Shown here one piece after another: positions 28,553-36,471 of a stretch of 64,000 nucleotides of DNA. The notes beneath the pieces are model-generated. The model did no database searches. It saw only the letters and a program-made list of their open reading frames with translations, and was not told the DNA's origin. Position numbers and translations under genes: made by a program. Location of the stretch: the NCBI GenBank assembly GCA_026388275.1, contig JAPLKB010000017.1, forward strand, positions 1 through 64,000, given 5' to 3'. This DNA comes from Pseudomonadota bacterium (lineage in GTDB: Bacteria; Desulfobacterota; Syntrophorhabdia; Syntrophorhabdales; Syntrophorhabdaceae). The number at the start of each line of letters is the position of its first letter. The first letter of the stretch is position 1.

Positions 28553-29227
28553 GTGGATATATCTAGTTTAAATAATTATACGGGTGGTATTTTAAGTCTG
28601 CTCTATGCTTCCGGGCCGGTTGCAAAGGCAGTTGTATCGATTCTTTTTATATTTTCGATTATATCATGGACAATCATACTATATAAATTTAAGCAATATA
28701 GTAGAACAGAGAAGGATTCGGAAAGATTTATGAGAACTGCAAGAGATGCGGATTCTTTTAAGAAATTAGTAACAACATACAGGGAAACACCCAACAACAC
28801 CTTTTATCGTTTGATGTTTGCATCTTATAAAGAGATTGCCTCAAGACAAAAAGAAAATCCCGGGATAAGACCTGAAATAATGCCGTCCGTTGAAAATGCT
28901 TTAAAAATAACTATGTCTGAAGAGACAGAGAGGCTTGAAAGAAGACTTTCTTTTCTCGCAACAACAGCAAACACTGCACCCTTTATTGGTTTGTTCGGTA
29001 CGGTATGGGGCATCATGGATTCGTTCCGTGAGATAGGGCTAAAGGGAACAACAAGCCTGTCTGTTGTTGCGCCAGGCATAAGTGAAGCGCTCATTGCCAC
29101 TGCTATAGGCCTTGCAACAGCTATACCGGCAGTACTTGCATATAATTATTTCAACGGCAGGCTGAAACGAATTCTATCAAAAATGGAAAATGCATCTATG
29201 TATATAATGAACCTTCTGGATAAATGA
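28553..29227 (+). CDS. tolQ: TolQ/ExbB-family proton channel protein
   Basis: The 224-residue inner-membrane protein starts with GTG 28553 (no better start is in frame). It has three predicted membrane segments: near 20-40 (AVVSILFIFSIISWTIILY), and two in the second half (ATTANTAPFIGLFGTVWGIM and ISEALIATAIGLATAIPAVL). The pattern TAPFIGLFGTVWGIMDSF is the hallmark of MotA/TolQ/ExbB channel proteins that harvest the proton gradient. It overlaps tolR by four bases and works with TolR and the downstream TolA/TonB-like protein to energise the cell envelope. Confidence 0.92.
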   Translation: MDISSLNNYTGGILSLLYASGPVAKAVVSILFIFSIISWTIILYKFKQYSRTEKDSERFMRTARDADSFKKLVTTYRETPNNTFYRLMFASYKEIASRQKENPGIRPEIMPSVENALKITMSEETERLERRLSFLATTANTAPFIGLFGTVWGIMDSFREIGLKGTTSLSVVAPGISEALIATAIGLATAIPAVLAYNYFNGRLKRILSKMENASMYIMNLLDK

Positions 29228-29631
29228 AGTTATTAAAGGATTCAAAAGCCCCTCTTTCTGAAATAAACATCGTCCCCCTTGTTGATGTTATGCTTGTCCT
29301 GCTTATCATATTCATGATAACGGCGCCAATGATGCAGCATGGAATGAATATCGATATTCCCAGGGTAACAACAAAACCTCTGCCAACCAAAGATGAGCCC
29401 CAAATACTCAGTATTTCAAGCAATAAACAACTCATATTAAACGAAAAAAGATTAGATGTAAAAGACCTCAAGGCGGCAATACAGCTCCTTTTTTCAAACA
29501 AAAACAGCAAAGAAATTTACTTAAGGGCAGATAAAAATGTTCCTTACGGATTTGTTGTGACTTGTATGGGTATTGTAAAGGAAGCGGGAGTGGAGAAGGT
29601 AAATATAGTGACAAAGCCTGCGGAGGAATAA
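29224..29631 (+). CDS. tolR: TolR/ExbD-family protein
   Basis: The 135-residue protein has one N-terminal membrane anchor (INIVPLVDVMLVLLIIFMIT) with the conserved channel aspartate in PLVDV, followed by a periplasmic domain containing the typical LRADKNVPYG near 100. It pairs with TolQ as the stator of the energising complex. The ATG overlaps the tolQ stop codon. Confidence 0.93.
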   Translation: MKLLKDSKAPLSEINIVPLVDVMLVLLIIFMITAPMMQHGMNIDIPRVTTKPLPTKDEPQILSISSNKQLILNEKRLDVKDLKAAIQLLFSNKNSKEIYLRADKNVPYGFVVTCMGIVKEAGVEKVNIVTKPAEE

Positions 29632-29732
29632 TGGTGAACAAGTGTCAGGCTATCAGCACTTAAATAAGAATCATGGAAACAACACATATTTTACTAATCA
29701 CCGAAGCCTGAAACGCTGACTGCCGGATTATC

Positions 29733-30536
29733 ATGAAAGAAGAAACCTGGTTTAAAATGCTCGTAATCTCTACGATTCTCCACTTCATTGTGGTTGGGGC
29801 GTTCAGCATCCCGATAAAAAGAACACCAAAGAGATTTGAGACATTATCGGCGTATTCTGTTAATCTTGTTGGAGATATTGGTCGAAGCCCCGGTGGCCCG
29901 AAGGGGGGAAATTTTTTGGATGGCAAGTCTGTTCCGGAGAAAAAGACACCTTCTGCCAAGGTGAGCAAATCTGTTCCCACACCAATGAAAAAACCGGTGC
30001 TTGAGAGAAAAGAAAAAGAGGCCGTGTCCCTTTCAAAGAAAAAGGTGCCTCCTAAACCTGCAAAGGAAACAACTACAAAAGAAGAATTAAGCCGGCTTAA
30101 TGACAGAATAAAAGAAATGAGAAGGCGTACTGAGTATCTTGATGTAACCAAGACAAAAGGATCGTCCGGAACAGGGGGAGCGAGGGGGACAGGCGGCGGT
30201 TATGGACTGCCCGGTTCTTCCGAAGGAGGAGGAACATCCCTTGATCCGGTATCACAGAGATATATGCTTGAAATATGGGAGAAGATAAAAAATTCATGGG
30301 GTTTACCAGGCGTGGCCTCATTCAAAAAAGACCTGGAAACAATAGTGACAATCAGAATACGAAAGGACGGAAGAATAGTGGATATCAACATTGAGAAGCG
30401 ATCCGGGAACAGGATATATGATGAATCAATACTCCGGGTATTACGATCTGTTGACCCTCTACCGCCTATACCTACGACTCTCAACATGGAAACCATGGAG
30501 ATAGGTTTCAGGTTTTTGCCGGGCGACATCTCTTAA
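29733..30536 (+). CDS. TolA/TonB-like energy transducer
   Basis: The 267-residue protein has one N-terminal membrane anchor (MLVISTILHFIVVGAFSI), a proline/lysine-rich middle (about 60-125) and a C-terminal TonB-type domain (about 170-265: SFKKDLETIVTIRIRKDGRI, DESILRVLRSVDPLPPIP). It would transmit force from TolQR to the outer membrane. tolB and pal, the usual next genes, are absent here, so the choice between TolA and TonB roles remains open. About 100 bases separate it from tolR. Confidence 0.85.
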   Translation: MKEETWFKMLVISTILHFIVVGAFSIPIKRTPKRFETLSAYSVNLVGDIGRSPGGPKGGNFLDGKSVPEKKTPSAKVSKSVPTPMKKPVLERKEKEAVSLSKKKVPPKPAKETTTKEELSRLNDRIKEMRRRTEYLDVTKTKGSSGTGGARGTGGGYGLPGSSEGGGTSLDPVSQRYMLEIWEKIKNSWGLPGVASFKKDLETIVTIRIRKDGRIVDINIEKRSGNRIYDESILRVLRSVDPLPPIPTTLNMETMEIGFRFLPGDIS

Positions 30537-30591: not shown

Positions 30592-31377
30592 CTATTTTTT
30601 GTTGTTTACAGAATCGGTTTTGTCCTCATTATCCTTCTTTTTCCCAAGCAACTTGTGTATAGTAGCGCTGAATGCCTGTATTATATAGTTTCTTGTGAAA
30701 TAGAGAACAACAGTAAAGGCTATGCTTACGGCCAGCAGCCAGAAAAATGTCTGATATCTGCCGTCTTTTAACGCACTTCCCTGTAAAGTAAGCATAAGTG
30801 TCCCCGGCAACCTGCCGAAAATATTCATAAACAGGAAATCTACGAGCCGTATATGGGTAAGGCCGAGGAGATAACAGAGGGTGTCTTTGGGAAAACCGGG
30901 TATTAGGAACAAGATAAAGGTAATGTTTAAACCTCTATGTGTTATAAAAAAATTGAATTTGTCTATATATTCTTTCTTTACTATTTTTTCCACAAAACCC
31001 ATGCCGAACAGCCTTGTTATGCCAAAGGCAAATAAGGAGCCAATTGCAAGCCCTATCGTAGAGAGTATTACCCCTGATGTGTTCCCGAAGAGAAAACCGC
31101 CTACAACACCGGTAAGTTCCCCCGGGACAGGAGCAACTATAACCTGTAATGCTTGAACTAAGACGAATACACAGGCAGCAAATGGACCGAAAGAGGCAAT
31201 AAAAACACGGAGTTTTCTTGGATCAAGGAAGAATTTATAAAAACCTATTATCTGCCGCCACTGACCTTCATGATAAACATAAAACATAAGTAAAATGAGG
31301 GCGCATATACAGAACCACAGTATTACACGCAGTAAAATGGATGTGGTTTTGGAATTGACTATGGATTTTTTTATCAA
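30592..31377 (-). CDS. TVP38/TMEM64 (VTT-domain) membrane protein
   Basis: This 261-residue integral membrane protein has about six hydrophobic segments. The VTT core includes VQALQVIVAPVPGELTGVVG near 80-100 and LIPGFPKDTLCYLLGLT near 160, the conserved re-entrant loop of the DedA/VTT superfamily of lipid-scramblase-like proteins. It overlaps the upstream GspE-like gene by four bases, so it is the last gene of a coupled uppS - ATPase - VTT unit. The lipid role is a family inference. Confidence 0.88.
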   Translation of the reverse strand: MIKKSIVNSKTTSILLRVILWFCICALILLMFYVYHEGQWRQIIGFYKFFLDPRKLRVFIASFGPFAACVFVLVQALQVIVAPVPGELTGVVGGFLFGNTSGVILSTIGLAIGSLFAFGITRLFGMGFVEKIVKKEYIDKFNFFITHRGLNITFILFLIPGFPKDTLCYLLGLTHIRLVDFLFMNIFGRLPGTLMLTLQGSALKDGRYQTFFWLLAVSIAFTVVLYFTRNYIIQAFSATIHKLLGKKKDNEDKTDSVNNKK

Positions 31378-33371
31378 GTTGGAATAGCCACAGTCCTTAA
31401 TACTTCGTCAACGGTGGTTAAACCTCCTTCGAGCAGTATCAGGCAGTAGTCTTTCAGGGTTCTCATCCCGTTTTTTATTGCTTCCTGTCTTATTATATTT
31501 GTTTCAGCTCCTTCTGCAATCAGGTGTCTTACCGGTTCTGTGACCACGAGCACCTCGTATACGCCTACCCTGCCTTTGTAACCTGACATGCTGCATAAAT
31601 CGCAACCCTTGCCTTTATATAGCTCTATATCTTCAGGCAGCCCGAGGTATTTTGCAATTACTTTTTCCGGAGTATACTTCTCTTTGCAGTTCGGGCATAT
31701 TCTCCGTACAAGTCGCTGTGCAATAATTCCGATGATTGATGTGGAGATAAGGAAAGGTTCTATACCCATCTCATTAAGCCTCATAAATGTACTTGGCGCA
31801 TCATTCGCGTGAAGTGTCGTAAAAACAAGGTGTCCGGTAAGAGCTGCCTCCACTGCAATCTTAGCCGTTTCTTTGTCCCTTGTCTCCCCGACGAGTATAA
31901 TATCAGGATCCTGCCTCAAAAAGGCCCTCAAAACCCGTGCAAAATCAAGTCCTATGTCAGAATTCACCTGGACCTGATTTATACCTGCAAGATCATATTC
32001 AATGGGGTCTTCCACGGTAGATATGTTCACATCTATTTCATTTTTTTCTGCTAATGAGCTGTAGAGAGTAGTACTTTTTCCAGAACCGGTGGGTCCTGTG
32101 ACAAAAATAATACCATAGGGTTTCTTAATCATATCACGAACAATTTCTAAAGTGGGCGGATGTGATATGATCCTGTCCAAGCCCATAGCAGTATTGCTTT
32201 TATCCAAAATCCTCGTACAAATCTTCTCACCGAATTTTGTCGGAACGGACGATACTCTGAAGTCTACAGTTTTATCCCCTACTTTCATTGTTATCCTGCC
32301 GTCCTGGGGAAGTCTTCTTTCCGTAATATCCAGTTTTGAGATAATCTTTACCCTGCTGATGAGCGGAAGTATTACCTTTCTGGGCAACATCATTTCTTCT
32401 CTTAAGACGCCGTCTATTCTGTAGCGTACCCTGCATCCTTTTTCCATGGGCTCTATATGGATATCGCTTGCACCCTTTTTCAGTGCCATGCCTATGATAT
32501 TGTTCGTGAGTCTTATAATGGGCGCACCCTTTGCTTCACTTTCCAGATCTGCTATCCCCATTTCATCTTCTTTACCTTCCTCTATTTCTATATCCTTCAT
32601 AAGGTCGGATTGTATAGAGTCCATGTTTTCAAGGATAGAGTCTATGCTGACTTCCGGTTTTTCTTCCTCTTTCTTAATTATTTCAGGATAGTCTTTTTCC
32701 ATGAACCTTTTCAGATCTTCATCCAAAATGAGAACCTGTTCAATGGCAAGTCCTTTTATAAACTTTCTTACCTCATCTATTGCCAAAAGGTCGGTTGGAT
32801 TGACCATGGCAAGAGTTAGTGTGCTATTCGAGTAAGCAATAGGCAGCACTCTATATCTTGTTATGAGTTGTTTCGGAATCAAAGAAAGCACTTCAGAGTC
32901 AATTTTTATAGTTGCAAGAGATTTAATGCCCATACCTTTCTGGGCATTCATTGTTTCTATCCTCTCAGCTACTATCTTGTTCAAAGACATGGAGATTGAG
33001 GGGTGTTCTCTGAGAAGACTCTCAAAAGCTGTTTTTTCCAATACAAATACTGATGTTGCCTGAACTGCCATTACTGTGGCTGTCCTCGGGTTGCCTGTCA
33101 AAAGTGCCATCTCGCCGAAACATGCCCCGCTGTCAAGGGAGGCGATGGACAGATCTATCCCAAGGTTGGGCTCTCTTTTCTTTATATCCACCTTACCGTT
33201 TTTAATAATGAACATGGAATCCCCGGACGCGCCTTCCCTTACTATTGCCGTATTAGGAGGATAAACCCTCTCTTTCAGCCTGACAGACAGTTCCTGAAGC
33301 TCTTCATCACCCAGGGATTTAAAAAGCTCTGTGTTTTTAAGACATGATAACTTTTCTGAGACAACATTCAT
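31374..33371 (-). CDS. GspE/PilB-type secretion ATPase with N-terminal cNMP-binding domain
   Basis: The 665-residue protein joins two modules. Residues 10-130 form a cyclic-nucleotide-binding domain (FIIKNGKVDI, ACFGEMALLTGNPRTATVMA, the phosphate-binding cassette). Residues 150-240 match the GspE/PilB N-terminal domain, and 280-660 the secretion ATPase: Walker A GPTGSGKSTT near 425, Asp box IEDPIEYD-like VEDPIEYD, Walker B ILVGETRDKETA, and zinc cysteines CPNCKEKY and CDLC near 560-590. ATPase motifs look intact. Such proteins assemble type IV pili or type II secretion pseudopili, but no pilus genes lie nearby. Regulation by a cyclic nucleotide is inferred from the fused domain. Confidence 0.92.
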   Translation of the reverse strand: MNVVSEKLSCLKNTELFKSLGDEELQELSVRLKERVYPPNTAIVREGASGDSMFIIKNGKVDIKKREPNLGIDLSIASLDSGACFGEMALLTGNPRTATVMAVQATSVFVLEKTAFESLLREHPSISMSLNKIVAERIETMNAQKGMGIKSLATIKIDSEVLSLIPKQLITRYRVLPIAYSNSTLTLAMVNPTDLLAIDEVRKFIKGLAIEQVLILDEDLKRFMEKDYPEIIKKEEEKPEVSIDSILENMDSIQSDLMKDIEIEEGKEDEMGIADLESEAKGAPIIRLTNNIIGMALKKGASDIHIEPMEKGCRVRYRIDGVLREEMMLPRKVILPLISRVKIISKLDITERRLPQDGRITMKVGDKTVDFRVSSVPTKFGEKICTRILDKSNTAMGLDRIISHPPTLEIVRDMIKKPYGIIFVTGPTGSGKSTTLYSSLAEKNEIDVNISTVEDPIEYDLAGINQVQVNSDIGLDFARVLRAFLRQDPDIILVGETRDKETAKIAVEAALTGHLVFTTLHANDAPSTFMRLNEMGIEPFLISTSIIGIIAQRLVRRICPNCKEKYTPEKVIAKYLGLPEDIELYKGKGCDLCSMSGYKGRVGVYEVLVVTEPVRHLIAEGAETNIIRQEAIKNGMRTLKDYCLILLEGGLTTVDEVLRTVAIPT

Positions 33372-34141
33372 CTTCCGAATCTCCTCCCTCTGTGCTGATA
33401 ACTTCTGATTGCCCGCAAAAAGTCGATCTTTCTAAAAGCTGGCCAAAGGGCATCGCAAAAGTAAAATTCGCTGTATACACTTTGCCATAAAAGAAAACCG
33501 CTTAAACGAATTTCACCACTTGTACGGATAATAAGGTCTGGATCAGGAATTCCGTTTGTATATAAATGGTTTGTTATATCTTCAATTGTTATGCTATCTG
33601 CTAATTCATCAGTGCTTTCAGCTTTTTTCTCTCTTATAGCTTCCCTCACAGCTTCAACGATCTCTTCTCTCCCGCCGTAGCCGATAGCTATATTCAGAAT
33701 GTGCCTTTCGTTATTTTTTGTATATTCTTCGGTATTTCTTATTGCTTCTTTTAATGTGTCGGGCAGCACATCGAACTTTCCGAGAATTTTAATTCTGAAG
33801 CCATTTTTTTTTATTACAAGACTTCTTGAGAGTTCGACTATTTTTTCTTCTATTACTTTCAGGAGGCCTTCCAACTCTGACTCGTCCCGCAGGATATTTT
33901 CCGTTGAAAGGACCCATATTGTTACAATTTTTATATCAAGATCGCTGCACCATTGAAGGACTCCGCCAAGTTTCCTTGCTCCTTCTTTGTGTCCCATTGT
34001 TACGTCATCAAAACCCATCTCTCGGGCAAACCTTCTGTTGCCGTCAAGGATGATGCCTATATGGGTTGGTTTTATCCCTTTCTGAACTTCATTTTCAAGA
34101 AGTTTTTCGTATGAATAGTATAGAGCCCTTTTTACAAGCAT
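33368..34141 (-). CDS. Polyprenyl diphosphate synthase (UppS-like cis-prenyltransferase)
   Basis: The 257-residue enzyme extends isoprenyl diphosphates with cis double bonds, as in undecaprenyl phosphate formation for cell-wall carriers. The catalytic stretch IGIILDGNRRFARE lies near 28, WVLSTENI near 78, NIAIGYGGREE near 150, and the closing PDLIIRTSGEIRLSGFLLWQ near 205 with the substrate-binding RTSGE...R. DGNRRFA rather than the common DGNGRWA indicates a divergent or secondary family member, so product length is uncertain. It is the first gene of a coupled three-gene unit. Confidence 0.88.
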   Translation of the reverse strand: MLVKRALYYSYEKLLENEVQKGIKPTHIGIILDGNRRFAREMGFDDVTMGHKEGARKLGGVLQWCSDLDIKIVTIWVLSTENILRDESELEGLLKVIEEKIVELSRSLVIKKNGFRIKILGKFDVLPDTLKEAIRNTEEYTKNNERHILNIAIGYGGREEIVEAVREAIREKKAESTDELADSITIEDITNHLYTNGIPDPDLIIRTSGEIRLSGFLLWQSVYSEFYFCDALWPAFRKIDFLRAIRSYQHRGRRFGR

Positions 34142-34270: not shown

Positions 34271-35494
34271 TCAGCCCTGTATTTGCCCTATTGGTTTCGG
34301 TCTTGAAACGAGGGACTTTACCGCATCCTTTAAACCGTCAAGGGTAAGCTCAAACATAGGAAATACCTTGCTTATCGTGTCTACGGTATAATGACCCCAA
34401 TAATTCCTGTGTGTGGGGTTCAGCCAGACCGAATGCGGAAAATGTTCTTTGATCTTCATAAGCCATTCCAGACCAGGCTTGTCGTTTGTATAGTAGTAGT
34501 CTATATTGCCGTTCACATCGAACAGCTCCGAGTATGCCATCCTCGCATCGCCGACAAAGACAACTTTATATCCGCTGTGAAAGTTTGAAAAAAGCTTTTC
34601 TGTGGGCATTCTTTTATAGTTCGATATGTCCTCGTAAACGTCCTGGTATATACAATTGTGGAAAAAATAATATTTGAATTCTTTGAAGTGCTCCATCTGG
34701 GTTGCAGCAGAAAAAAGCCTTTCGCAAAGCTCTGAGTATGGCCACATCGAACCGCCGGTATCCATTAGCAGAATAAGCCTTACCGAGTTTTCCCTCGATT
34801 TGTTAAAAACAAGCTCAATTTCTCCGCCTTCCTTTGCAGTTTTGTCTATTGTCTGATCTATATCCAGTTCTTCTTCTGTCCCTTCTCTTTTTAATTCTCT
34901 CAGTTTTTTCAAAGCCATTTTTGTTTGTCTTACATCAAGTATAATGTCATTTCTATAGTTCTTGAATCTTCTTTCTTCTGCTACTTTTGATGCGGACTGC
35001 ATCCATGATTCCCCGCCAACCCTTATTCCGCCGGGATGATATCCGTATGCCCCAAAGGGTGATGTGCCGCCTGTTCCTATCCATTTACCCCCGCCGTCAT
35101 GCCGCTCTTTCTGTTCTTTCAGTCTTTCCCTGAATTGCTTCATCAATTCTTCCAGATCGTGCTCTTTTTTAAAATCCTCCAGTTTTTGCTGAAACTCTGC
35201 CATTTCTTCGGGACTCATCTTGGGAAGCCTGTGGGTAGGGTTTTCAAGCCATTCAAGTACTTTATCGAGATCGGCGGGCTCTGTTTTGATTCCGCCGAAA
35301 TACTCCTGGAAAGCTTCGTCAAACATATCGTAGAATGCTTCACTTTTCACAAGAAAAGCCCTTCCGATATAATAAAGATGATCAAGGCTTGATTGAAAAT
35401 AACCGTTATACAATGCTTCTATGAATGATAACCATTCTGTGACGGCAACAGGTACGCCCTTTTTTCTTAAAAGATAAAAAAAATCAGTAAACAT
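34271..35494 (-). CDS. CoxE-like VWA-domain protein
   Basis: The 407-residue protein has a C-terminal von Willebrand A fold of the CoxE type. The MIDAS sequence is degenerate but present (LLMDTGGSM near 240). The middle part is charged and includes ELDIDQTIDKTAKEGGEIEL. It forms a pair with the MoxR-type ATPase upstream (35553-36407), the typical MoxR-VWA chaperone couple that activates metalloenzymes or other complexes. The target here is unknown. Confidence 0.88.
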   Translation of the reverse strand: MFTDFFYLLRKKGVPVAVTEWLSFIEALYNGYFQSSLDHLYYIGRAFLVKSEAFYDMFDEAFQEYFGGIKTEPADLDKVLEWLENPTHRLPKMSPEEMAEFQQKLEDFKKEHDLEELMKQFRERLKEQKERHDGGGKWIGTGGTSPFGAYGYHPGGIRVGGESWMQSASKVAEERRFKNYRNDIILDVRQTKMALKKLRELKREGTEEELDIDQTIDKTAKEGGEIELVFNKSRENSVRLILLMDTGGSMWPYSELCERLFSAATQMEHFKEFKYYFFHNCIYQDVYEDISNYKRMPTEKLFSNFHSGYKVVFVGDARMAYSELFDVNGNIDYYYTNDKPGLEWLMKIKEHFPHSVWLNPTHRNYWGHYTVDTISKVFPMFELTLDGLKDAVKSLVSRPKPIGQIQG

Positions 35495-35552: not shown

Positions 35553-36407
35553 TTAAAATCTCTTTCTGAATCCTGATCCACCCTGAGCACTGCTGAGTTT
35601 TACGAACCTTCCTGTATCCTGCTCGGTTTTGAGGAGCGCTCCAAGAAAAGGTATTTCAGATGATATTTTATCAATGCTGATTCCGCCAAGAGCGAGAACT
35701 TTTATCCAGTCAATAAGTTCGCTTGTTGATGGTTTTTTCCGTAGACCTTCTACTTCGCGTATCCAGTAGAATTTCTTAATTGCTTCTCTCATAAGCTTGT
35801 TTTCAATATCCGGATAATGTACTTTTACGATCTTTTCCATCATTTCCTGATCGGGAAATTCAATATAGTGAAATACGCACCTTCTCAGAAAGGCATCAGG
35901 CAGTTCCTTCTCTGAATTGCTTGTAATGATTACGACAGGTCTGTGCTTTGCTCTGACTTCTTCATCAAGCTCCGGTATATGAAAAGTCATTTCATCAAGT
36001 TCGTTAAGCAGATCGTTCGGGAATTCCACATCAGCCTTGTCAACTTCATCTATCAAAAGGACCAGTTGCTCGTCGCTGGTGAATGCTTGTCCCAGTTTGC
36101 CGAGCTTTATATACTGCCTTATATCGGAGATGTCTTTGTCTTTGAATCTTGCATCATTTAGCCTTTGAACGGTATCATACACATATAGGCCGTCTTTTGC
36201 TTTTGTAGTTGATTTAATATTCCAGATAAGAAGCTTCTTATTAAGCGCGCCTGCTATGCTGTGAGCAAGAAGCGTTTTGCCTGTGCCGGGTTCGCCTTTA
36301 ATAACAAGCGGTTTTCCCAGTGCGACTGAAACATTTACAATCTCCATTAAAGGCCTTGACGCTATGTAATCATCGCTTCCCTGATATCCGTGTGTAGTTG
36401 TTGCCAT
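35553..36407 (-). CDS. MoxR-family AAA+ ATPase
   Basis: The protein has 284 residues from ATG 36407, selected because GAAGGAGG lies eight bases upstream. Walker A GEPGTGKT near residue 38, Walker B VLLIDEVDKAD near 120, sensor ITSNSEKELPDAFLRRCVFH near 165, and a C-terminal lid. MoxR ATPases work with VWA proteins to fold or load cofactors into enzyme complexes. The VWA partner is downstream after 58 bases. It is read from the promoter at 36442-36471. Confidence 0.93.
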   Translation of the reverse strand: MATTTHGYQGSDDYIASRPLMEIVNVSVALGKPLVIKGEPGTGKTLLAHSIAGALNKKLLIWNIKSTTKAKDGLYVYDTVQRLNDARFKDKDISDIRQYIKLGKLGQAFTSDEQLVLLIDEVDKADVEFPNDLLNELDEMTFHIPELDEEVRAKHRPVVIITSNSEKELPDAFLRRCVFHYIEFPDQEMMEKIVKVHYPDIENKLMREAIKKFYWIREVEGLRKKPSTSELIDWIKVLALGGISIDKISSEIPFLGALLKTEQDTGRFVKLSSAQGGSGFRKRF

Positions 36408-36425
36408 GAACTCCTCCTTCTTATA

Positions 36426-36471
36426 AGTGAAAAATATCACTATTATACGACTAACTTATACCTGTTGTCAA
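36426..36471 (-). promoter_or_regulatory. Promoter of the MoxR-VWA operon with palindrome
   Basis: On the minus strand TTGACA (36471-36466) and TATAAT (36447-36442) are separated by 18 bases, both boxes matching consensus. AGTGA-AAAATA-TCACT (36426-36441) lies where transcription would begin and could bind a repressor. Confidence 0.75.

What the first reader, a model, noticed from the sequence alone, without database searches (positions are those of the whole stretch)
31374..34141. Cyclic-nucleotide domain fused to a secretion ATPase, coupled to a prenyl synthase and a VTT protein
A cNMP-binding module precedes an intact GspE/PilB ATPase, and the gene overlaps both a cis-prenyltransferase gene and a VTT lipid-scramblase-like gene by four bases. 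No other pilus or secretion genes lie here. The arrangement implies a lipid-linked process controlled by a nucleotide second messenger.
Basis: partly seen in the sequence, partly recalled or inferred. Interest (0 to 1): 0.55.

Follow-up and report, generated by a model that had tools for sequence, protein, structure and literature searches.

The report
Pilus motor carrying a cyclic-nucleotide sensor
A bacterial pilus-type motor enzyme carries a sensor for a small signal molecule (probably cAMP or cGMP) in place of the usual c-di-GMP sensor, and its gene is locked between two genes for carrier lipids of the cell wall; the arrangement is old and conserved, but what it does has not been tested.

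Summary
Confirmed. ORF 31374-33371(-), 665 aa, is cNMP_binding + MshEN (C-terminal half) + intact T2SSE ATPase. It overlaps a cis-prenyltransferase gene and a VTT gene by 4 bp each. Of 44 Syntrophorhabdales genomes searched, 39 carry the fusion. The overlap with UppS is exactly 4 bp in 25 of 26 linked loci, with VTT in 31 of 34. The ligand cassette is kept: Glu87 in 56 of 56, Arg96 in 55 of 56. A tree built without the cNMP columns unites 26 cNMP-fused ATPases from Syntrophorhabdales, Acidobacteriota, Sericytochromatia and one further deltaproteobacterial MAG (100/100). They lack the c-di-GMP motif of ordinary PilB. In two Acidobacteria the next gene is a CHASE2-adenylate-type cyclase. 'No pilus genes here' is true locally but misleading: the genome has a dispersed type IV pilus, and in four relatives the fusion appears to be the only PilB-class motor without a linked platform. 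Best reading: a cAMP/cGMP-gated PilB-type extension motor co-expressed with undecaprenyl-lipid genes (about 0.5). Against it: UppS or the ATPase can be lost separately, and two small genomes keep fusion plus platform without a free secretin. No paper found describes this subfamily. Function, ligand and partner are untested.

The parts
31374..33371 (-). cNMP-PilB: cyclic-nucleotide-binding domain + MshEN C-terminal half + PilB/GspE-type ATPase, 665 aa
   Evidence: 39 of 44 order genomes
33003..33269 (-). cNMP-binding domain (residues 35-123)
   Evidence: PF00027; predicted CNBD fold matched to PKG, CRP and GlxR structures (model weak overall)
33072..33119 (-). Phosphate-binding cassette FGEMALLTGNPRTATV (residues 85-100); Glu87 and Arg96
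   Evidence: E87 56 of 56, R96 55 of 56 fusions
32685..32921 (-). MshEN C-terminal half (residues 151-229), without the c-di-GMP motif half
   Evidence: PF05157; motif score 4-6 of 11 in 26 fusions against 7-11 in 18 pilBTC-type PilB
31395..32534 (-). T2SSE ATPase domain (residues 280-659)
   Evidence: PF00437; Walker A 426-432, Glu496, tetracysteine 559/562/590/593 invariant in 15 of 15
32076..32096 (-). Walker A GPTGSGK (residues 426-432)
   Evidence: invariant in 15 of 15
31593..31697 (-). Zinc tetracysteine region (C559, C562, C590, C593)
   Evidence: invariant in 15 of 15
33368..34141 (-). Second undecaprenyl/polyprenyl diphosphate synthase (UppS paralogue), 257 aa
   Evidence: PF01255; TIGR00055 239 bits over cut-off 109.55; housekeeping copy is at C8 between frr-like and cdsA-like genes (names by eye)
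33368..33371 (-). 4-bp overlap UppS stop / ATPase start (ATGA)
   Evidence: same overlap in 25 of 26 linked loci
30592..31377 (-). VTT-domain membrane protein, 261 aa, TTG start
   Evidence: PF09335; PxPGE invariant in 38 of 38
31374..31377 (-). 4-bp overlap ATPase stop / VTT start (TTGA)
   Evidence: same overlap in 31 of 34 loci
34271..35494 (-). VWA (CoxE-like) protein upstream, same strand
   Evidence: PF05762; recurs upstream in part of the loci
35553..36440 (-). MoxR-like AAA ATPase upstream of VWA, same strand
   Evidence: PF07728; recurs with VWA

Best explanation
The gene encodes a PilB-class (type IV filament extension) ATPase whose c-di-GMP sensor half has been replaced by a cyclic-mononucleotide-binding domain. 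Most likely cAMP (or cGMP) made by the cell's class III cyclases binds the cassette and switches the ATPase, which drives a pilus whose other parts are encoded elsewhere: the HtrA-linked PilC-type platform, PilA, PilMNOPQ and the PilT/PilU-like pair. Translational coupling with UppS and the VTT protein ties its amount to undecaprenyl-lipid supply or turnover. Shown: domains, intact ATPase and cassette residues, loss of the c-di-GMP motif, single clade, conserved overlaps, cyclase neighbour in two Acidobacteria, dispersed pilus genes. Inferred: ligand identity, gating, platform partner, and the reason for the lipid coupling.
For: Domains. Closest solved structures are T4aP PilB of Geobacter by sequence and fold. 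E87 56 of 56, R96 55 of 56. c-di-GMP motif scores only 4-6 of 11 in 26 of 26 fusions of the set, against 7-11 in 18 of 18 pilBTC-type PilB. One clade 100/100, sister to a T4aP PilB group at 95/88. CHASE2-class III cyclase gene 52 bp and 9 bp downstream in L142 and L143, with Lys and Thr at the recalled adenylate-type positions. Own genome has 4 class III cyclases. Own genome has 10 T2SSF matches, read as five platform genes with two matches each, every one beside another PilB/GspE, and a sixth, unpaired ATPase: this one. G020 has one platform and the fusion as its only full-length PilB; in G040, G005 and G014 the fusion and the HtrA-linked platform are what is left after pairing by contig. Dispersed T4aP genes in own genome and G003. 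Order RR-HK-HtrA-PilB-PilT-PilC in L237 against RR-HK-HtrA-PilC in this order.
Against: G040 (98% complete) and G020 (93%) keep the fusion and the platform although no free secretin (0 in G020; the only one in G040 lies in another pilus cluster) and few or no free pilins were found. Own genome has another PilB beside that platform (C10), and G003, G010 and G018 have an unlinked PilB closer to the T4aP clade, so the fusion is not the only candidate motor there. G018, G002 and G025 have the platform without the fusion. UppS and the ATPase are lost independently. The cyclase neighbour is in 2 of 16 Acidobacteria/other loci (L133-L148), both from one branch. Several loci end at contig ends. The AlphaFold model is weak (mean pLDDT 61.6, pTM 0.32).
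Confidence: 0.5

Rival explanations
1. It is not a pilus motor but a cyclic-nucleotide-gated ATPase that acts on the envelope: it sets undecaprenyl-phosphate use (UppS2, VTT, convergent UppP) for a surface polysaccharide or protein glycosylation, as M. xanthus PilB is reported to act as a signalling protein for exopolysaccharide.
For: 4-bp overlaps with UppS and VTT in 25 of 26 and 31 of 34 loci; UppP/BacA convergent beside VTT in 10 of 42 loci plus L213 and L215; fusion kept in G020 and G040 without a free secretin; no pilus gene hit beside it in the Acidobacteria loci read; M. xanthus PilB/EPS paper (PMC5544727, search listing only).
Against: Genera g4 and g11 keep ATPase-VTT without UppS and 3 genomes keep UppS-VTT without the ATPase; Acidobacteria fusions have no UppS or VTT hit beside them; all motor features invariant.
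Confidence: 0.25
2. Accessory extension motor (as TfpB beside PilB in Acinetobacter baylyi): it shares the platform of a pilus that has its own PilB and adds cAMP control.
For: Own genome, G003 and G010 have another PilB that could serve the platform; G040 keeps fusion + second platform besides a pilus cluster with its own PilB/PilC/PilT; two-motor precedent in PMC11656802 (passages read) and PMC8213720 (search listing).
Against: In G020 the fusion is the only full-length PilB found; genome 93% complete.
Confidence: 0.15
3. The operon is a passenger arrangement: the motor gene sits between lipid genes by historical accident and is only kept there by the overlaps; no functional link with lipids.
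For: Independent loss of either partner; Acidobacteria copies sit elsewhere.
Against: Exact 4-bp overlaps kept over ATPase identities down to 57%.
Confidence: 0.1

Closest known systems
PilB, type IVa pilus extension ATPase (Geobacter PilB, PDB 5tsg/5tsh/5zfr)
   Same: MshEN C-half + T2SSE core, about 50% identity in the core; Walker A, catalytic Glu and tetracysteine kept
   Different: N-terminal c-di-GMP motif half replaced by a CNBD; separate clade from 18 pilBTC-type PilB; no pilus genes beside it; below NCBIfam PilB cut-off (571.1 against 675.65)
MshE / MshEN c-di-GMP-controlled motors
   Same: same ATPase class, with an N-terminal nucleotide sensor
   Different: c-di-GMP motif scores 4-6 of 11 in the fusions against 7-11 in pilBTC-type PilB; sensor is of the cAMP/cGMP type
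Cyclic-nucleotide-binding domains of PKA, PKG and CRP
   Same: cassette FGE...PR(T/S)A; phmmer and Foldseek matches
   Different: output is a PilB-type ATPase, not a kinase, channel or DNA-binding domain
TfpB of Acinetobacter baylyi (second extension motor)
   Same: possible second PilB-class motor in one cell
   Different: no cNMP domain is mentioned for it in the passages read; NF053534 score 445.1 against cut-off 850

Membership tests
PilB/GspE extension ATPases (T2SSE) | T2SSE domain over curated cut-off | tested here: met
   436 bits against 24.9
PilB/GspE extension ATPases (T2SSE) | Walker A, catalytic Glu, tetracysteine zinc site intact | tested here: met
   invariant in 15 of 15; roles of the residues recalled
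GspE or PilB equivalogs (NCBIfam) | score over equivalog cut-off | tested here: not met
   GspE 576 against 630.25; PilB 571.1 against 675.65
T4aP PilB of pilB-pilT-pilC operons | falls inside that clade | tested here: not met
   separate 100/100 clade, sister at 95/88
T4aP PilB of pilB-pilT-pilC operons | linked to platform or pilin genes | tested here: not met
MshEN c-di-GMP receptors | tandem RLGxx... 24-residue motifs | tested here: not met
   window best 5 of 11; motif from the abstract of PMC5013675
Cyclic-nucleotide-binding domain proteins | PF00027 over cut-off with cassette Glu and Arg | tested here: met
   69.4 bits against 27.5; E87, R96
Cyclic-nucleotide-binding domain proteins | binds cAMP or cGMP | not testable with these tools
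   needs a binding assay; a CRP-type protein (Clp) is reported to answer to c-di-GMP instead (PMC3749722 passage)
UppS (cis-prenyltransferase) | TIGR00055 over cut-off | tested here: met
   239.3 against 109.55; D33, R206, R212, S214 conserved in at least 95% of 30 rows, housekeeping copy included; their catalytic roles recalled
DedA COG0586 undecaprenyl-phosphate flippases | two acids at first and two arginines at second re-entrant helix tip (PMC10127716) | tested here: inconclusive
   one acid (PGE) invariant in 38 of 38, the second position looks like an invariant Gln, second motif looks COG0398/TVP38-like; register recalled, not aligned to a reference

The most novel reading that the evidence does not exclude
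A distinct, single-origin subfamily of pilus extension motors, spread over Syntrophorhabdales, Acidobacteriota and Sericytochromatia, has swapped the c-di-GMP sensor for a cAMP/cGMP sensor, so that filament extension is gated directly by a cyclic mononucleotide; in Syntrophorhabdales motor synthesis is translationally coupled to undecaprenyl-lipid enzymes, linking pilus extension to the cell-wall lipid carrier.
Probability: 0.35. Interest if true: 0.72.

Novelty: new variant of a known kind. Interest (0 to 1): 0.5.

Why it matters
As far as the papers seen here go, PilB-class motors are controlled by c-di-GMP through MshEN or by protein partners, and cAMP acts on pili through transcription (passages of PMC11656802). 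A motor with a built-in cAMP/cGMP sensor would give direct, fast second-messenger control of filament extension, and the conserved coupling with undecaprenyl-lipid genes gives a testable link between pili and the envelope lipid cycle in largely uncultured syntrophs.

Tried and rejected
Rejected: (1) New fold or chance ORF: domains are far over cut-off and conserved. (2) Simple orthologue of the pilBTC PilB moved out of its operon: the tree puts the fusion in its own clade, and three relatives (G003, G010, G018) have an unlinked PilB closer to that clade. (3) VTT as an undecaprenyl-phosphate flippase: its motifs fit COG0586 only in part. (4) UppS here as the housekeeping enzyme: a second copy lies at C8 in the usual cluster. 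(5) AlphaFold model for domain docking: too weak to use beyond the CNBD fold. (6) Fusion restricted to this order: also in Acidobacteria and Sericytochromatia. Literature: searches listed no paper on a cNMP-PilB fusion; only open-licence PMC papers are held, and the lists were cut (20 of 31; 20 of 83; 15 of 141; 12 of 74).
Full report
Observation. The ORF at 31374-33371(-) is 665 aa and holds cNMP_binding (35-123), MshEN (151-229) and T2SSE (280-659). UppS (33368-34141) and VTT (30592-31377) overlap it by 4 bp each. The window genome has 3.5 Mb in 71 contigs. Its named relatives are Syntrophorhabdaceae, Syntrophorhabdus and unplaced 'Deltaproteobacteria' MAGs, so it is placed in Syntrophorhabdales by inference; NCBI lists that order in Thermodesulfobacteriota.

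Conservation. With residues 1-290 as query, 39 of 44 genomes of the same order (own included) have a match over nearly the whole query, 43 copies in all, and 0 of 16 genomes of other orders of the phylum do (missing in G002, G018, G024, G025, G043). In an even phylum sample of 395 genomes, 15 of 17 order genomes have it; among the rows listed, none from the other 378 genomes starts before model position 132 (weaker rows were not listed). In the 42 fetched loci (43 copies less the own one) UppS precedes in 26, with exactly 4 bp overlap in 25 and a 3-bp gap in 1. VTT follows in 34, with exactly 4 bp in 31, gaps of 12 and 14 bp in 2 and a longer overlap by an alternative start in 1. The 16 without UppS are 11 loci of genera g4 and g11, where VWA lies upstream instead, and 5 paralogues (L082, L084-L087) with neither neighbour in the fetched DNA. 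The 8 without VTT are 3 at contig ends and those 5 paralogues, one of them also at a contig end.

Separable parts. Genera g4 and g11 have lost the second UppS (one UppS per genome, except G019 with two) and keep ATPase-VTT. G018, G024 and G043 have MoxR-VWA-UppS-VTT with no ATPase between UppS and VTT (L213, L214, L215; UppS of L215 placed). So the ATPase and UppS do not need each other. A convergent UppP/BacA gene (PF02673, tested on the L213 copy) lies beside VTT in 10 of 42 loci and in L213 and L215, which makes the neighbourhood one of undecaprenyl-phosphate metabolism. The window itself gave no UppP hit.

Sensor. The cassette FGEMALLTGxPR(T/S)ATV keeps Glu87 in 56 of 56 and Arg96 in 55 of 56 cNMP-fused sequences; the exception is the paralogue L087. 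The residue after Arg is Ser/Thr in 49 and Ala in 7, which does not settle cAMP against cGMP (that rule is recalled). The published c-di-GMP motif (abstract of PMC5013675) scores 4-6 of 11 in the 26 fusions of the tree set, against 7-11 in 18 pilBTC-type PilB and 9-10 in the genome's two MshE-like motors. GspE-type motors of the same set also score 4-5, so a low score alone is not peculiar to the fusions. The c-di-GMP half has been replaced, not added to.

Kin. A tree of 59 ATPases on columns downstream of the cNMP domain puts all 26 cNMP-fused ATPases (14 copies and 3 paralogues of this order, 9 from Acidobacteriota, Sericytochromatia and one delta MAG) on one side of a 100/100 branch, next to a group of T4aP PilB (95/88) and apart from GspE and MshE types. 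ACI_L148 has a long branch and its place is unsure. The Acidobacteria copies stand without UppS, VTT or pilus gene hits. In L142 and L143 the next gene, 52 bp and 9 bp away, encodes CHASE2 + class III cyclase, with Lys and Thr at the positions recalled as adenylate-type. That is 2 of 16 loci L133-L148, from one branch. In several others a BadF-type kinase follows (Pfam checked for L140 only).

Partner. Own genome: six full-length PilB/GspE genes and ten T2SSF matches, which I read as five platform genes, each next to one of the five other ATPases (Pfam checked for the C10 platform; the C58 one looks split into two ORFs). A platform with the order RR-HK-HtrA-PilC (domains) was read in 14 genomes including the own one; in 13 of 14 no ATPase lies beside it in the stretch (L192 and L199 end at or near it). 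It is most like PilC of the pilB-pilT-pilC operons of other families (49-58% identity, against about 30% for the genome's T2SS platforms), and in L237 the full order is RR-HK-HtrA-PilB-PilT-PilC-PilS-PilR (names by similarity). The T4aP genes of the own genome are scattered: PilMNOPQ-like at C55, PilA-like at C33, a PilT/PilU-like pair at C64 (names by similarity and context, not by HMM for each). In G020 the fusion is the only full-length PilB and there is one platform. In G040, G005 and G014 the fusion and this platform are what is left after pairing by contig (in G005 the platform was not fetched; in G014 the fusion lies over two contigs and its second piece was not checked). Against this, G020 has no secretin match, and the single one of G040 belongs to another pilus cluster, as do its N-methyl pilins. 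G003, G010 and G018 have an unlinked PilB nearer to the T4aP clade.

Mechanism. Shown: an ATPase with intact motor motifs (15 of 15), an intact cyclic-nucleotide cassette, loss of the c-di-GMP motif, conserved translational overlap. Inferred: cyclic mononucleotide binding changes ATPase state and so filament extension; the partner is the unlinked PilC-type platform; the lipid genes are co-expressed because filament or envelope assembly draws on the same lipid carrier, or only because the operon is inherited.

Verdict.

Noticed in passing
L202:1847-4465(-), L203:5363-7957(+): PilB-class ATPases of about 870 aa fused to receiver domains (two Response_reg stretches + MshEN + T2SSE in L202; L203 is its neighbour in the tree): another motor with a built-in signal input.
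   Followed up: partly
L201:2359-4671(+): 770-aa PilB-class ATPase with a weak DUF4388 match before MshEN.
   Followed up: no
L142:11114-13783(+), L143:2001-4658(+): CHASE2-class III cyclase genes directly behind the cNMP-ATPase in two Acidobacteria.
   Followed up: yes
L133:1634-4033(+): This acidobacterial copy carries an extra N-terminal zinc ribbon (PF13717) before the cNMP domain; similar N-termini are seen by eye in L136, L140, L141, L144.
   Followed up: partly
L087:5122-7128(-): Paralogue in G036 has lost the cassette Arg and part of the loop: possibly ligand-free.
   Followed up: no
L092:7756-8977(-): Platform gene of the C58 pilus cluster appears as two overlapping ORFs (300 + 134 aa), perhaps a frameshift or assembly error.
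   Followed up: no
G010:C58:11661-12317 and G019:C43:11661-12317: UppS matches with identical contig coordinates in two genomes: possibly one contig binned twice.
   Followed up: no
window 28553-30536(+): TolQ-TolR-TonB2-like genes lie convergent with the VTT gene; the order recurs in part of the relatives.
   Followed up: partly
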